This document shows positions 1,043 to 6,941 of a DNA stretch of 54,122 bases, one piece after another. The stretch spans positions 1 to 54,122 of the forward strand of contig JANXWB010000033.1 in assembly GCA_025351345.1 (NCBI GenBank), read 5' to 3'. Within the stretch, counting starts at the first letter, position 1. Each line of letters opens with the position of its first letter. Below the pieces are notes generated by a model that had not been told where the DNA came from, did no database searches, and saw only the letters and a program-made list of their open reading frames with translations. This stretch comes from Synechococcales cyanobacterium GL140_1_metabat_312. GTDB taxonomy: Bacteria; Cyanobacteriota; Cyanobacteriia; Leptolyngbyales; Leptolyngbyaceae. Both the position numbers and the translations under genes were made by a program.

Positions 1043-2089
1043 ATGGCGACAGTACTTGCGATCGAAACAAGTTGTGACGAAACAGCGGTGTCTATCGTTA
1101 AGAATCGTGAAGTTCTTAGCGATATTGTTGCAACTCAGATTGATATTCACCGTATTTATGGGGGAGTTGTCCCCGAAGTGGCGTCTCGTCAGCACCTTGA
1201 AGGCGTAAATGTTGCGATCGATCAAGCCCTAGAACAATCTGGCCTAACTTGGCGTGAAATTGATGCGATCGCTGCCACCTGTGCGCCGGGACTCGTGGGT
1301 GCGCTTTTGGTGGGGCTGATGGCGGCAAAAACCTTAGCCATGGTGCATCGAAAGCCGTTCCTTGGCATCCATCACTTAGAAGGCCATATCTATGCGTCCT
1401 ACCTCAGCGACCCAACTCTGGAGCCGCCATTTCTTTGTCTGTTGGTGTCGGGTGGCCATACCAGCTTGATTGCGGTGAGGGAATGTGGGCGCTATGAAAT
1501 CTTGGGCCAAACGCGGGATGATGCTGCGGGGGAGGCGTTTGATAAAGTGGCACGGTTGTTGAAGCTGGGTTATCCTGGTGGGCCGGAAATCGATCGGCTC
1601 TCTAGCATCGGCAATCCTAAAGCCTTCCCCTTACCCGAAGGTCGTATTTCGCTTCCGAATGGCGGATTTCATCCCTATGATGCGAGTTTTAGTGGATTGA
1701 AAACAGCAGTACTTCGCTTAACTCAGACACTTGAAGCCACAGGAGAGCCGTTACCCGTGGCCGACATTGCCGCAAGTTTTCAGTTCACGGTTGCAAAGGC
1801 ATTGACTAAACGAGCGATCAAATGTGCGTTGAATGAAGGTTTGACGACGATCGCGATTGGCGGTGGTGTGGCGGCAAATAGTGGATTACGATCGCAATTG
1901 CAAGCGGCAGCGACTCCCCACGGAATCCGGGTCATTTTTCCACCTTTGAAATATTGCACCGATAATGCAGCCATGATTGCTTGTGCAGCAGCCGAACATT
2001 TTGATCTAGGTCATCGATCAGATTTGGGCTTGGGAGCACGATCGAGACTGCCTGTTTCGCACGTTATGGATTTATATGTAGGACCATAA
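1043..2089 (+). CDS. tsaD: tRNA N6-adenosine threonylcarbamoyltransferase TsaD
   Basis: TsaD (Gcp/YgjD/Kae1) transfers the threonylcarbamoyl group onto A37 of ANN-decoding tRNAs, working with TsaB and TsaE. The 348-residue length is normal. Visible hallmarks are the N-terminal ASKHA start ([10 protein letters not shown], residues 5-14), the metal-binding His pair in HHLEGH (His111, His115), GGHTSL, the [12 protein letters not shown] segment and the late [11 protein letters not shown] motif. The coding sequence is intact, but its last about 22 codons (2012-2077) are repeated at 2775-2840, on the far side of the MntA/HepT genes. The present C-terminus reads MDLYVGP, whereas the displaced copy reads MDLYHPLD, so the end of the gene appears to have been exchanged. 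Confidence 0.95.
2012..2077 (+). repeat. Direct repeat, copy 1: 3' end of tsaD
   Basis: These 66 bases match 2775-2840 with 5 mismatches at a constant offset of 763 bases. Four of the mismatches are synonymous in the TsaD frame (Ser TCA/TCG, Gly GGA/GGG, Leu TTA/CTG, which accounts for two changes); one changes His to Gln. The two copies bracket mntA-hepT. Confidence 0.9.
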
Positions 2090-2092
2090 TCT

Positions 2093-2431
2093 ATGAATAC
2101 AGTTGAATTTTCCGCTATGCTGATCCAAAACGTTGACCTGCCGATGGGAGAACTTAAAAAGATATGCGATCGGTGGCAAATCGTTGAATTTTCATTATTT
2201 GGATCCATCTTGAGAGATGACTTTCAAGCAACTAGCGATATTGATGTTCTAATCTCTTTTGCGCCTAATGCTCGAAAAGGTTTGCTTGTCCTAGCCCGAA
2301 TCAAACACGAATTAGAAGACTTGTTAGGAAGAGATGTTGATATTCTAACGAAGAAATCAATCGAACAAAGCCACAACAAAACTCGAAGTGAAAACATTTT
2401 AAAATCGGCTCAAATACTATATGTCGCGTGA
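2093..2431 (+). CDS. mntA: MntA-type nucleotidyltransferase antitoxin
   Basis: This 112-residue protein has a minimal nucleotidyltransferase fold. The diagnostic GSX10DXD motif is exact: Gly37-Ser38, then Asp49-Ile-Asp51, followed by a hydrophobic strand. In characterised HEPN/MNT modules MntA adds AMP residues to the Tyr of the HepT toxin and silences it. The gene starts 3 bases after the tsaD stop and overlaps hepT by 11 bases, giving a tight two-gene module. It appears complete. Because the partner toxin is shortened, the antitoxin may have little left to control. Confidence 0.85.
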   Translation: MNTVEFSAMLIQNVDLPMGELKKICDRWQIVEFSLFGSILRDDFQATSDIDVLISFAPNARKGLLVLARIKHELEDLLGRDVDILTKKSIEQSHNKTRSENILKSAQILYVA

Positions 2432-2705
2432 TCAACAATCAATTCAAGACATATGGAATGCAGCTCAAGAGATTCTCAGTTTTACGCTGGAGATGAGCTA
2501 TGAGGAGTTAGCATCCGATCGGCGCACTCAAGCTGCGGTTCTCTACGAAATCGTCGTTATGGGAGAAGCCGCTAATCGGTTATCTCCTGAATTTCGATCG
2601 AATCATCCTGAAATTCCCTGGAAAGATATCATTGGAATGCGCAATATTCTGGCTCACCAATACGAGAAGGTGGATACGGAGGTTGTGTGGGATGCGGTTC
2701 GATAG
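2421..2705 (+). CDS. hepT: HEPN-domain RNase toxin HepT, truncated by an in-frame stop
   Basis: A 94-residue HEPN (DUF86) protein carrying the RX4HXY signature: Arg74, His79, Tyr81 (RNILAHQY). In the family the Arg/His pair is the RNase site and the Tyr is AMPylated by MntA. The frame stops at TAG 2703-2705 right after VWDAVR. Reading through it continues in the same frame for 17 codons (DIPEIIVLLQPC...) to TAA at 2757-2759, which is how HepT proteins normally end. One base change from a sense codon such as CAG explains the stop. The catalytic motif is retained, but the last helix is lost, so activity is uncertain. Start overlaps mntA. Confidence 0.8.
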   Translation: MSRDQQSIQDIWNAAQEILSFTLEMSYEELASDRRTQAAVLYEIVVMGEAANRLSPEFRSNHPEIPWKDIIGMRNILAHQYEKVDTEVVWDAVR

Positions 2706-2774
2706 GATATTCCTGAGATAATTGTTCTCCTACAACCTTGTATCAGAATGGAAGATTAAGTCTCCCTACTACAA

Positions 2775-2840
2775 CATCGATCGGATTTGGGCTTGGGGGC
2801 ACGATCGAGACTGCCTGTTTCGCAAGTTATGGATCTGTAT
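2775..2840 (+). repeat. Direct repeat, copy 2: displaced tsaD 3' end
   Basis: This is the second copy of the tsaD C-terminal coding segment. It encodes [19 protein letters not shown] and then DLYHPLD with its own TAA (2853-2855). It is not attached to any tsaD body. With 2012-2077 it flanks the MntA/HepT module. Looping out one repeat would remove 763 bases and restore a continuous tsaD. Confidence 0.9.
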
Positions 2841-2887: not shown

Positions 2888-4282
2888 ATGAAAAAAGTTC
2901 CCCTAGGCGATCGATTTCTAGGATTTCATGGTTGGGTGCTATTGGGCTATGCTCTGATGGGACGAGGATTTTCCTATGTTGGGATTCCACCGCTATTCAT
3001 TGGCGAAATTTCCCTTATCTTTGGATTTATCAGTATTTTTCTGAACCGATCGACCAATTATTTTCTATCCACAGCATTCCCAAAAATACTCAAATTACTT
3101 CCAGCCCAGATCCTAGTCATCTTCATGACATGGTGCTTGATTTGTACCCTTCCCTATGTCTCAAAATATGGCATTGATAGTGTGCGAGACTCGGCAATTT
3201 GGTACTACGGCTTTTTTGCCCTGATCATCGCAACCCTGATTGCCGCCAATCCAAAGCGATTACTCGATATTCTCAACCGCTATCGGCACTTTGTCACTAT
3301 TTTTTTGGTGTTGTGTCCAATTTTCTTTTTAATCAACCAAGCCGAAATTGCACCCAAGTTACCCAGTTCGCCTGTAGCCATCATTGAATTAAAAGCAGCA
3401 GATTTAATGATTCATCTGTCTGGCGTAACGGCATTTTTTGTGGCTATGAAAATTCAAAATATTGGATTATTTATTGGAAGTTTTATCGTTAATTTAGTGG
3501 TTGTCGCAGCCCAAGCGAACCGATCGGGAAGTTTGGCTTTTTTATGTTCTTTTTTAGTAGTCATAACGTTCCGTCCTCAAAGCTATCGAATTTGGGGAAT
3601 TATGGTCACCTTACTTCTAGGGGGAATGTTAGTTCTGGCCTTTCATCCAGAACTTATTGCCCCTATTTTTAGCAAGATGGCAACTATTTTTGTAGACGAT
3701 GGTGCTGAACGCTATCAAGGGACGAAAGAATTTCGACTGAAGTGGTGGACCCACATTTACAATTATACCTTTGGCGGCGAATACTTTTGGATGGGTAAGG
3801 GCTTTGGTGTGAATCTCGGACTGGATGATCACTTCGATCCCCTAGGAGATGGAAAAGTCCGAAGCCCACATAATGGACACCTTTGCATCTTGGCTCGGAG
3901 CGGGGTTCCAGGGTTCTTTCTGTGGATTGGGTTGCAAGGAACTTGGGTGTTAGGCATTTTACAACGGTTGCTACGATCGGTGATGATTCAAGGCCAACGC
4001 CTGTGGCGGGGTCTATTTTTATTCCTGTTCTGCTACTGGATTGCGTTCATGATCACCATTAATTTTGAGGTGGTTTTGGAAGGTCCATCGGGCGGCGTTT
4101 GGTTATGGAGTCTTTTGGGGCTGGGACTAGCGGCAATGTTTGTTTACGACTCTCATGCTGATCTAATGAATATTCCGGTTAATGAATTAGATCTTGATTC
4201 GCTCCATAATGAACCAGTGCGTGAAGTTGAGAGTTCATTTTTTCCTGCTGATATTGGCGCTGACGACGCATCCCGATACTAA
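2888..4282 (+). CDS. O-antigen ligase/polymerase-like membrane protein (Wzy_C type)
   Basis: About 464 residues from MKKVPLGDRFLG, with at least ten hydrophobic segments and a large loop in the C-terminal half (roughly residues 270-340) containing WWTHIYNYTFGGEYFWMGKG and HNGHLCILARSG. That layout of a polytopic protein with a periplasmic loop of the F-x-G...H-N type is typical of the Wzy/WaaL O-antigen ligase superfamily (family knowledge). These proteins polymerise repeat units or attach glycans at the periplasmic face. An upstream in-frame start at 2738 is rejected because that stretch is the displaced tsaD 3' end in another frame. The downstream glycosyltransferases converge on it. Confidence 0.75.
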   Translation: MKKVPLGDRFLGFHGWVLLGYALMGRGFSYVGIPPLFIGEISLIFGFISIFLNRSTNYFLSTAFPKILKLLPAQILVIFMTWCLICTLPYVSKYGIDSVRDSAIWYYGFFALIIATLIAANPKRLLDILNRYRHFVTIFLVLCPIFFLINQAEIAPKLPSSPVAIIELKAADLMIHLSGVTAFFVAMKIQNIGLFIGSFIVNLVVVAAQANRSGSLAFLCSFLVVITFRPQSYRIWGIMVTLLLGGMLVLAFHPELIAPIFSKMATIFVDDGAERYQGTKEFRLKWWTHIYNYTFGGEYFWMGKGFGVNLGLDDHFDPLGDGKVRSPHNGHLCILARSGVPGFFLWIGLQGTWVLGILQRLLRSVMIQGQRLWRGLFLFLFCYWIAFMITINFEVVLEGPSGGVWLWSLLGLGLAAMFVYDSHADLMNIPVNELDLDSLHNEPVREVESSFFPADIGADDASRY

Positions 4283-4309
4283 TAGATGTACCCGTCAAAA
4301 TAGCCAGCG

Positions 4310-4347
4310 GTCCCCTGGTAAAGATATAGTCCCCTGGTAAAGATATA
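4310..4347. repeat. 19-bp perfect tandem duplication
   Basis: GTCCCCTGGTAAAGATATA occurs twice head to tail (4310-4328, 4329-4347) in the 149-bp spacer between two convergent polysaccharide genes. No function is apparent; it looks like a slippage duplication. Confidence 0.85.
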
Positions 4348-4431
4348 AACTGTGATGTTATCGGTCAGCTTGAGTTGCATTATCGAGATAAGTATTAGAT
4401 CTACCCAAAGGCTAATATTTTGTATTATGAA

Positions 4432-5673
4432 CTATAGCGATCGGTACAACTCACTATAATCTCGGCCTCTCGTCTCCCACAGATAAAACTGCCGTACTCG
4501 CTGTTGGGCCGCAATACCTAGAGCCGATCGTAATGCTTTATCTTGATTCAACTGCACCATCGCTTGTGCTAATCCTGTCACGGCCTTGGTTGGATTCACA
4601 GCAGGTACCCGAATGCCCGTTTCATCAGTAATTTGTCGGCTAGGTCCACCCAAATCGAGACAAATTACAGGCAATCCCGCTGCCATCGCCTCTAGGCAAA
4701 CGGTCGGTGAAAAGTCATGCAAACTAGGATGCACCAACACATCACATTGCGCCATTACTTGCAGCGCATCTATCCGAGACAATGGACCTAAGAACTTAAT
4801 TCGATCGCCCCAGCCCGATCGCTGAACAAGCTCTTTTAACCGCGCCTCTTCCGCACCAGTCCCGCCAATCCAGTATTCTGCATTAGGTAAATCCGCCTCA
4901 ATAAACCCCCGAATACCCAAATGAAATCCCTTCCAATGAATCAGTCGTCCTAAGCTCAAAAATCTGACTGATTGATTTGAAGAAGAATTAGAAAACTGTA
5001 CTTTGAGTTGTTCAAATTGTGCCAACTCCGCCGCAGTAATTCCCGTTTGGCCACTCACCCATTCCAGACGTTTCACACCCAGTGCCTTCAGTCGTTTCGC
5101 AGTTTCAGGCGTACAAGCCAAAGCGATCGCACTCTTTCGGGCTGTCAAATGCACAAATGGATCTAACTCACCAGAAATACGCGCCGCTTGTCGTAAAAAC
5201 TCATATAGTTTTGCTTTTAAATTGAAATCTTTCCAAAAACTAACCGGAGCTGATTCCCCACCGCCCACTGGACCCCAGACAAAGGGAATCGGTAAAAAAG
5301 ACAGAAAACTTGGAGCCGAATACCGCCCGTAAGTGGCATGATGAACAAGGTCAAAGCCGATCGTTTGATGTAGAGTTTTGATTTTAAAATAAGCCGCAAT
5401 TTGCCAAAGATAATGATGCAAATGGACATCCCATTGAATGCCTTTGCCCCCTGTTTCCCAGTCGTAAACCCAATCAAAGGGATCTAAATATATCCAATGA
5501 AGCTGTGCGGCGACTCCCGTCATTAGTTCTGCTTCAATACCCCGCCGATGAGTCGCTGTCGTCAATACCCAGACTTCATGGTCTTGGGAAATAGCACTGG
5601 CAATATTCCACCCCACACCGGGTTCCGAGCCTTTATTCGGTTCACAAGCATAGGCTGAAACTAAAACTTTCAT
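4432..5673 (-). CDS. Glycosyltransferase family 4 (GT-B fold)
   Basis: A 413-residue GT-B protein. The N-terminus MKVLVSAYACEPNKGSEPGVGW is the typical start of a GT4 subgroup with an acceptor-side glycine loop. The C-terminal domain shows SLGRLIHWKG, and the donor-binding segment has the family signature E-x7-E-like stretch in HDFSPTVCLEAMAAGLPV. It should transfer a sugar from a nucleotide donor onto a lipid-linked intermediate in the cytoplasm. Donor and acceptor cannot be told from sequence. It is the last gene of the leftward block (ABC exporter, GT2, GT4, GT4), 83 bases after the previous one. Confidence 0.85.
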   Translation of the reverse strand: MKVLVSAYACEPNKGSEPGVGWNIASAISQDHEVWVLTTATHRRGIEAELMTGVAAQLHWIYLDPFDWVYDWETGGKGIQWDVHLHHYLWQIAAYFKIKTLHQTIGFDLVHHATYGRYSAPSFLSFLPIPFVWGPVGGGESAPVSFWKDFNLKAKLYEFLRQAARISGELDPFVHLTARKSAIALACTPETAKRLKALGVKRLEWVSGQTGITAAELAQFEQLKVQFSNSSSNQSVRFLSLGRLIHWKGFHLGIRGFIEADLPNAEYWIGGTGAEEARLKELVQRSGWGDRIKFLGPLSRIDALQVMAQCDVLVHPSLHDFSPTVCLEAMAAGLPVICLDLGGPSRQITDETGIRVPAVNPTKAVTGLAQAMVQLNQDKALRSALGIAAQQRVRQFYLWETRGRDYSELYRSL

Positions 5674-5756
5674 TATGAATCCAAGCCATTTATTCTAATA
5701 CTGCTCATTCTGATCAATTACATTGTAGATATGATGCTGAATATGATTCTAAATAC

Positions 5757-6941
5757 CTATTCTAGATAAGTAACATTGCCTGATCCCGAGACGGCAGCAG
5801 CATCCAACGTCTCAATTCCGCCATACGCCCTAAGAGCCGATCGGGCGATCGTCTCCCATTTTAGATTGGCTAATACATAATTCCGTCCCGACAATCCCAT
5901 AGACCGCCATCGATCGCGGCATTCCAAAAGTTTCAATAGCGCATCCTGAATTGACTCTACCGTCGGCTTCACCACCAATCCTGCACCACTTTCATTCACA
6001 TAGGATGCTAAACCTGCAACCTCTGAAATCACAATTACTCGCCCCGCCAACATTGCTTCTAATGCTGATAAACTAAATCCTTCAAATCGGGATGGCACAC
6101 AAAAAATATCATATTCCATCATCAATTTGGTGGGGCTACTCTGATAGTCCGGAGCTAAAAACGTCACGTGATCTTGAATCCCTAAGCGTATCACCTGCGC
6201 CTGAAGAGTCGCCCGATCGCCCCATTCCGGTCCCTGCAATGTGACATGAATCCCCTGATACTCCAACACTTGGCTCGCTGCGGTCAGCAACAAATCCAAC
6301 CCCTTGTTGTGGGCATCAAAACGACCTAAAAAGTAAAGGTGGGGAATCCCCTGCTGCCGCCACTGAAGCCTAGATGCTGGTGGGATATCGGATGGATCAA
6401 ACCCATTAGGAAGTGCAATAGTTTTTGTTTTGATGCCACGCTGATGAAGATAGTGCTGATGCCGCCTATCTAAAATTTGCACGGCCCAAGCGGCTCTTAA
6501 CATCGGCGCTTCTTGGAGATACCAATAAATAATTTTGAGCCATTTTTTCTTCTGGAAAATAGTCGGATGGTAAGGATCGTGGGGAGCCACAATATAGGGA
6601 ATTCGTTGACGTTTTAACAGCCTCGCCATCGCTGCCACACTTCGGTGAAAAATACCATTGAGAATGACCCGATCGCCCTCGTTAATCTCCGTCTTAATAT
6701 ACGCCACAAGCGCAGGGGATAGACGCATTGTTGGGTGCGTATGGGGAGCGGAAAAGGTGCGAATATCATAGCCAAATTCACTTCGACGATATCCCGCCGC
6801 TGGACCTTCGCTTAAGACTGTTACTGATTGTCCTATTGCCGCTAGCCCCGAAGCCAAACCATGCACAGCTTTCGACACCCCTTCGGAACAAGGAGGATTG
6901 CATAGGGGAAAATGTTTAAGATAGAAAAAAATTTTCATCAT
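5757..6941 (-). CDS. Glycosyltransferase family 4 (GT-B fold)
   Basis: A 394-residue protein with GT4 features: an N-terminal acceptor domain (CSEGVSKAVHGLASGL), a linker, then YFLGRFDAHNKGLDLLL and the donor-site motif FEGFSLSALEAMLAG, where Glu residues contact the nucleotide sugar. The start has two adjacent Met codons (MMKIFFYLKH); either could be used. It lies 83 bases from the next glycosyltransferase and on the same strand as the GT2 and ABC exporter upstream, so it probably acts in the same polysaccharide assembly. Substrate unknown. Confidence 0.85.
   Translation of the reverse strand: MMKIFFYLKHFPLCNPPCSEGVSKAVHGLASGLAAIGQSVTVLSEGPAAGYRRSEFGYDIRTFSAPHTHPTMRLSPALVAYIKTEINEGDRVILNGIFHRSVAAMARLLKRQRIPYIVAPHDPYHPTIFQKKKWLKIIYWYLQEAPMLRAAWAVQILDRRHQHYLHQRGIKTKTIALPNGFDPSDIPPASRLQWRQQGIPHLYFLGRFDAHNKGLDLLLTAASQVLEYQGIHVTLQGPEWGDRATLQAQVIRLGIQDHVTFLAPDYQSSPTKLMMEYDIFCVPSRFEGFSLSALEAMLAGRVIVISEVAGLASYVNESGAGLVVKPTVESIQDALLKLLECRDRWRSMGLSGRNYVLANLKWETIARSALRAYGGIETLDAAAVSGSGNVTYLE

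What the first reader, a model, noticed from the sequence alone, without database searches (positions are those of the whole stretch)
2421..2759. HepT toxin ends at an in-frame TAG 17 codons early
The frame is broken by TAG 2703-2705 and then continues with DIPEIIVLLQPC to a natural stop at 2757-2759. The RNase motif RNILAHQY is intact. Loss of the last helix may disarm the toxin while keeping the antitoxin, or the stop may be suppressed. A disarmed toxin would let the flanking repeats delete the module.
Basis: seen in the sequence. Interest (0 to 1): 0.5.

Follow-up and report, generated by a model that had tools for sequence, protein, structure and literature searches.

The report
Broken toxin gene in repeat-bracketed cassette
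A cyanobacterium carries a toxin-antitoxin gene pair whose toxin gene has been cut short by a stop codon, an ordinary decay event, but the pair sits between two copies of its neighbour gene's end, a layout that turns out to recur around many such pairs and may show how they move.

Summary
A HepT-like RNase gene (2421-2705) ends at TAG 2703-2705, and the frame stays open for 17 more codons to TAA 2757-2759. All 27 unbroken relatives compared keep 27-39 residues after the HxY motif; this one keeps 13. The stop removes 18 of the 26 residues of the last helix, as modelled. Forty-two tRNA genes were found in the genome, none reading UAG. The antitoxin MntA is intact. Best reading: a recently disarmed toxin with its antitoxin kept. 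This is ordinary: 15 of 150 listed hepT matches in 291 genomes of the class carry stops (the window included) against 5 of 150 for mntA, and this genome has two further broken hepT genes out of four. The more interesting fact is the setting. The pair lies between two 66-bp copies of the 3' end of tsaD. Bracketing direct repeats occur at 30 of 152 related modules, against 11 of 654 slid control placements. In five loci unrelated toxin-antitoxin or similar gene pairs form arrays, each preceded by a copy of a methylase gene's 3' end that usually runs into the next start codon. I found no description of this in the searches made. The mechanism is unproven.

The parts
1043..2089 (+). tsaD (tRNA t6A threonylcarbamoyltransferase), intact; the host gene whose 3' end is duplicated around the module
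   Evidence: TIGR03723 425.4 bits, cut-off 296.1; PF00814
2012..2077 (+). repeat copy 1: codons 324-345 of tsaD
   Evidence: the repeat finder, 66 nt, 92% identical to copy 2
2093..2431 (+). mntA-like antitoxin (minimal nucleotidyltransferase, 112 aa), open; GSX10DXD at 2201-2245
   Evidence: PF01909 59.8 bits; NF047752 35.9 bits, below its cut-off of 60; motif read from the sequence
2421..2705 (+). hepT-like toxin gene, 94 aa, ended by TAG
   Evidence: PF01934 88.3 bits
2640..2663 (+). codons of RNILAHQY (RX4HXY motif)
2703..2705 (+). premature TAG; relatives carry a sense codon here and read on
2706..2759 (+). orphaned 3' part of the hepT frame (17 codons, then TAA), still recognisable as the HepT tail
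2775..2840 (+). repeat copy 2: remnant of the tsaD 3' end; its frame runs on to TAA 2853-2855
2888..4282 (+). next gene: Wzy_C / O-antigen ligase-like protein (start of a polysaccharide region)
   Evidence: PF04932 40 bits

Best explanation
The locus is a type VII-like MntA-HepT toxin-antitoxin module whose toxin has recently been disarmed by a nonsense codon, while the antitoxin gene stays open. The short HepT keeps the RNase motif but lacks 18 of the 26 residues of the last helix of the four-helix HEPN fold, including a column (100) that is nearly invariant in the family, so it is probably unstable or inactive. The module arrived as a two-gene unit whose similarity to its closest relatives runs from the mntA start codon to near the end of hepT. 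It lies at the 3' end of tsaD, with the last 22 codons before the variable tail of tsaD present on both sides. With the toxin dead nothing would be left to punish loss of the module, and the 66-bp repeats offer a route for its deletion. Shown: the stop, the homologues' lengths, the intact antitoxin, the repeats. Inferred: loss of activity, recency, relaxed retention, deletion route.
For: 27 of 27 unbroken relatives are longer by 14 or more residues after HxY. 148 of 150 listed matches extend past residue 95. The solved HepT chains found also match beyond this point. Models: last helix 86-111 when read through, 86-93 when truncated. Pfam score rises from 88.3 to 98.0 bits when the frame is read on. 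No UAG-reading tRNA among 42. Before the stop 53 of 54 columns invariant in five close intact relatives are kept; after it 2 of 4 (Fisher p 0.011). Broken hepT is common: 15 of 150 listed rows against 5 of 150 for mntA (14/149 against 5/149 without the window, p 0.055). In the own genome three of four hepT-like genes are broken (TAG here; TAA at residue 20 on C69; cut at residue 83 on C73) and all four neighbouring nucleotidyltransferase frames are open. Counting these three and the 14 other broken hepT genes, 13 of 17 have an open mntA neighbour, 2 a broken one, 2 unclear.
Against: The RNase motif and nearly all conserved positions before the stop are intact, so a short active protein is not excluded. 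AlphaFold2 gives the truncated form nearly the same confidence (pLDDT 90.4 against 91.0), which does not show that it fails to fold. The post-stop comparison rests on four columns. The excess of broken toxins over antitoxins is borderline, and the two lists are not the same modules. NCBIfam equivalog cut-offs are not reached for either protein, so activity even of the intact ancestor is inferred.
Confidence: 0.73

Rival explanations
1. The truncated HepT is still a working or weakened toxin, or a dominant-negative or regulatory short form, controlled by MntA as usual.
For: RX4HXY intact; 53 of 54 conserved pre-stop columns kept; MntA open with GSX10DXD; high model confidence for the short form.
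Against: No unbroken relative ends here (27 of 27 longer; 148 of 150 matches run past residue 95); 18 of 26 residues of the last helix are missing.
Confidence: 0.16
2. The TAG is suppressed or read through, giving full-length HepT.
For: The post-stop frame is open and still HepT-like.
Against: None of 42 tRNA genes found has anticodon CTA. Two of four conserved post-stop columns have changed. Stops in other hepT genes are scattered over the gene (positions 17 to 99), with no significant concentration after the motif (6 of 16, p 0.27).
Confidence: 0.05
3. Sequencing or assembly error at the stop.
For: Reads are not available; no second genome of the species was found.
Against: It would be a single substitution outside a homopolymer, in a 54-kb contig of an assembly rated 99.99% complete, which is an unlikely kind of error (inference). 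Two further hepT genes of the genome are independently broken.
Confidence: 0.06

Closest known systems
Type VII HepT/MntA of Shewanella oneidensis (SO_3166/SO_3165; PDB 5yep, 6m6u, 7bxo)
   Same: PF01934 toxin with RX4HXY behind a PF01909 protein with GSX10DXD, genes overlapping; the read-through model's best Foldseek match is 6m6u (TMq 0.70, E 8.6e-3)
   Different: The window toxin ends 13 residues after HxY; the solved chains match beyond that. Its MntA is short (112 aa), nearer in size to the Legionella MNT (about 108 aa) said to lack helix alpha-4 (PMC11586414, passages)
HEPN/MNT modules described as mobile (Makarova 2009, PMC2701414, passages)
   Same: Two-gene module present in one genome and absent from close relatives; the three congeners lack it at tsaD
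   Different: The passages read describe mobility without a mechanism; 'direct repeat' does not occur in the text. Here gene-end repeats bracket the module
Integron cassette arrays (recalled; listing only)
   Same: The arrays L291, L292, L293, L295, L296 alternate small toxin-antitoxin-like units with a repeated element
   Different: The repeat is the coding 3' end of a methylase gene, not recognised as attC, and overlaps the next start codon in 18 of 20 copies. No integrase was seen among the ORFs listed, but none was specifically searched for

Membership tests
Type VII HepT toxin (HEPN-M/DUF86) | PF01934 domain | tested here: met
   88.3 bits, cut-off 23.5
Type VII HepT toxin (HEPN-M/DUF86) | RX4HXY motif | tested here: met
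   R74, H79, Y81, invariant in 20 aligned proteins
Type VII HepT toxin (HEPN-M/DUF86) | complete last helix of the HEPN bundle | tested here: not met
   helix 86-93 instead of 86-111; tail 13 against 27-39 residues
Type VII HepT toxin (HEPN-M/DUF86) | NCBIfam equivalog NF047751 cut-off of 60 bits | tested here: not met
   42.9 bits; 46.0 when read on
Type VII HepT toxin (HEPN-M/DUF86) | RNase activity, toxicity and neutralisation by AMPylation | not testable with these tools
   needs an experiment
MntA antitoxin | PF01909 with GSX10DXD, upstream of and overlapping hepT | tested here: met
   59.8 bits; GS37-38, D49, D51; genes overlap by 11 bp
MntA antitoxin | NCBIfam equivalog NF047752 cut-off of 60 bits | tested here: not met
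   35.9 bits
Transposon-type insertion with short target-site duplication | short identical target repeats and a transposase | tested here: not met
   repeats of 38-251 bp, 75-98% identical, over 30 modules; no transposase ORF between the window's repeats
Integron cassette | integrase and attC sites | not tested
   no dedicated search was made

The most novel reading that the evidence does not exclude
MntA-HepT and other small toxin-antitoxin-like pairs of cyanobacteria are cassettes that lodge exactly behind host genes and are bracketed by copies of that gene's 3' end. The repeats let unrelated pairs pile up into arrays, in which the copied gene end supplies the stop-start junction of each pair, and they give a route for gain and loss by homologous recombination without a recombinase of their own. 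The window shows the last stage of one cassette's life: single, bracketed by the tsaD end, its toxin disarmed.
Probability: 0.4. Interest if true: 0.72.

Novelty: new variant of a known kind. Interest (0 to 1): 0.42.

Why it matters
The stop codon itself is routine toxin decay. The setting matters more. Toxin-antitoxin pairs are known to be very mobile although most carry no transposase, and how they move is unclear. A recurrent gene-end repeat around them, and arrays of unrelated pairs sharing one repeat, make that question testable by comparing strains with and without the pair and by measuring excision in a naturally transformable cyanobacterium.

Tried and rejected
Stop suppression: rejected for lack of a UAG-reading tRNA. 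A natural short subfamily ending at residue 94: not found. Clustering of stops in the tail: not significant. The module as a tsaD-linked unit in relatives: among the loci then in hand, no homologous module lay next to tsaD. Arrays as tandem duplication of one module: rejected, because neighbouring hepT genes are only 27-49% identical where measured while the repeats in the same arrays mostly match at 80-97% over 50-60 nt. Broken toxin as the cause of bracketing: not supported. Repeat polarity: at tsaD the remnant is nearer the congeners (5, 6, 11 differences against 9, 7, 13 for the intact copy), but at the methionine gamma-lyase locus of the same genome the intact copy is nearer (70/80 against 64/80), so import of a new gene end versus local duplication is undecided. 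L149 was dropped from the bracketing count (self-match artefact) and five modules were too short to test. L037 is counted although its locus is full of repeats. L007, bracketed, fell below the E-value limit and is not counted there. Plasmid search: no match of 60% identity or more among 1477 records.

Full report
Observation. The frame 2421-2705 codes for 94 residues and ends at TAG 2703-2705; 17 further codons lead to TAA 2757-2759. The protein matches PF01934 (HepT-like; 88.3 bits) and the gene before it, 2093-2431, matches PF01909 (59.8 bits) with GSX10DXD intact. Both fall below the NCBIfam equivalog cut-offs.

Is it a truncation? Close cyanobacterial relatives at 74-84% identity read through this column; four of the five end at 108-116 residues, and the fifth, L024, is itself broken by another stop and has a decayed motif. 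In 27 unbroken relatives the part after HxY has 27-39 residues, against 13 here (3 of 30 loci dropped as the window's own or stop-broken). In one search, 148 of 150 listed matches run past residue 95. The read-through model has a last helix 86-111, the truncated one 86-93. The read-through model resembles solved HepT (6m6u, TMq 0.70, E 8.6e-3). [quoted passage not shown] That the short form is inactive is inferred, not shown.

Suppression or error? Forty-two tRNA genes were found in the genome; ARAGORN read them and none has a CTA anticodon. Before the stop 53 of 54 columns invariant in five close intact relatives are kept; after it 2 of 4 (p 0.011; very small numbers). This fits a recent stop with no selection behind it. 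Read support could not be checked.

How unusual? Of 150 listed hepT matches in 291 genomes of the class, 15 carry stops, the window included; of 150 listed mntA matches, 5 do (rows counted by hand; 14/149 against 5/149 without the window, p 0.055). Stop positions are spread from residue 17 to 99. In the own genome the C69 copy has TAA at residue 20, the C73 copy changes frame at residue 83 where it meets a repeat, and the C24 copy is open. Of 17 broken hepT genes (these three and the 14 others), 13 have an open mntA neighbour, 2 a broken one (L147, L150) and 2 are unclear (L149, L155). A disarmed toxin with antitoxin kept is therefore an ordinary fate.

The flanking repeats. Copies 2012-2077 and 2775-2840 (66 nt, 92%) are codons 324-345 of tsaD. 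DNA similarity to the closest modules starts at the mntA start codon and ends near 2737, so the shared unit is the gene pair itself. The three congeners have tsaD without the module. Both copies share bases that these congeners lack, so the duplication lies within this lineage or came from a close one.

Is the bracketing chance? I gathered 158 modules in 144 loci; 153 could be tested and one (L149) was an artefact. Thirty of 152 are bracketed by a direct repeat scoring 30 or more, against 11 of 654 slid placements in the same loci (6 of 116 loci, some of them second modules of arrays). Fisher p is 7.5e-15 by placement and 4.8e-4 by locus. In an earlier set of 59 modules, one of 3422 between-locus pairs reached this score. 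For VapC modules 1 of 29 did (1 of 30 skipped; p 0.03), so the pattern may not be confined to MntA-HepT. In 8 of the 30 one copy lies at or next to the 3' end of an open frame longer than 250 codons: TsaD in the window, and in the others a type I specificity subunit, an Eco57I methylase, a HEAT-repeat protein, an MmeI-type enzyme, methionine gamma-lyase, a Uma2 protein and a NicO-like protein. Genes lie close together, so a gene end in the flank is not by itself surprising.

Arrays. In 13 loci two or three modules are neighbours. Their hepT proteins are 27-49% identical where this could be measured, while repeat copies in the same arrays mostly match the probe at 80-97% over 50-60 nt, so the modules were not made by copying one another. 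In L291 an Eco57I methylase gene is followed by MntA-HepT, repeat, MntA-HepT, repeat, HicA-HicB, repeat. L296 has six copies of a similar repeat before MntA-HepT pairs, a DUF3644 gene, XisH-XisI and DUF4258-DUF2283. In 18 of the 20 copies of this repeat type in five loci the copied end runs into the next gene's start codon through an overlapping stop and start; the two exceptions are in L295 (read by eye). L294 has a different repeat.

Interpretation. I consider the stop codon ordinary decay. The bracketing is, as far as these tools show, a real and recurrent layout of unproven mechanism. Circle integration by homology, single-sided recombination from a relative, or an unseen recombinase would each produce it. 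Polarity of the copies points one way at tsaD and the other way at methionine gamma-lyase. The near-exact joins at start codons in the arrays speak against random joining, but selection for translation could also explain them.

Literature. Searches showed no title or abstract describing repeat-bracketed HepT-MntA modules; most hits were seen only as listings. Passages were read in PMC7641770, PMC11586414, PMC2701414 and PMC3710099. Subscription papers are mostly not held.

Noticed in passing
window 2012-2077 and 2775-2840: Codons 324-345 of tsaD are present on both sides of the mntA-hepT pair; the downstream copy is a remnant with an open frame to TAA 2853-2855.
   Followed up: yes
L002 (G000:C73), reverse-complement coordinates 917-996 and 1777-1856: Second mntA-hepT module of the same genome, bracketed by copies of the methionine gamma-lyase 3' end; its hepT is cut at residue 83 by the junction with the remnant.
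   Followed up: partly
L160 (G000:C69): A third hepT-like gene of this genome carries an internal TAA at residue 20 next to an open nucleotidyltransferase gene.
   Followed up: partly
L291, L292, L293, L295, L296: Arrays of unrelated small pairs (MntA-HepT, HicAB, XisHI, DUF4258-DUF2283 and others) each preceded by a copy of a methylase 3' end that overlaps the next start codon in 18 of 20 copies.
   Followed up: partly
L294 1-16001: Three copies of a different repeat around two mntA-hepT modules about 30% identical in hepT.
   Followed up: partly
L258 (G136, VapC locus): A VapC module also bracketed by a 106-nt direct repeat.
   Followed up: no
L159 (G162:C63): Another genome's hepT is broken by a TAG four codons downstream of the window's stop position.
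   Followed up: partly
window 2888-6941: Behind the module lies an O-antigen ligase-like gene and further long frames; DNA behind tsaD differs in all three congeners, so the site borders a variable region.
   Followed up: partly
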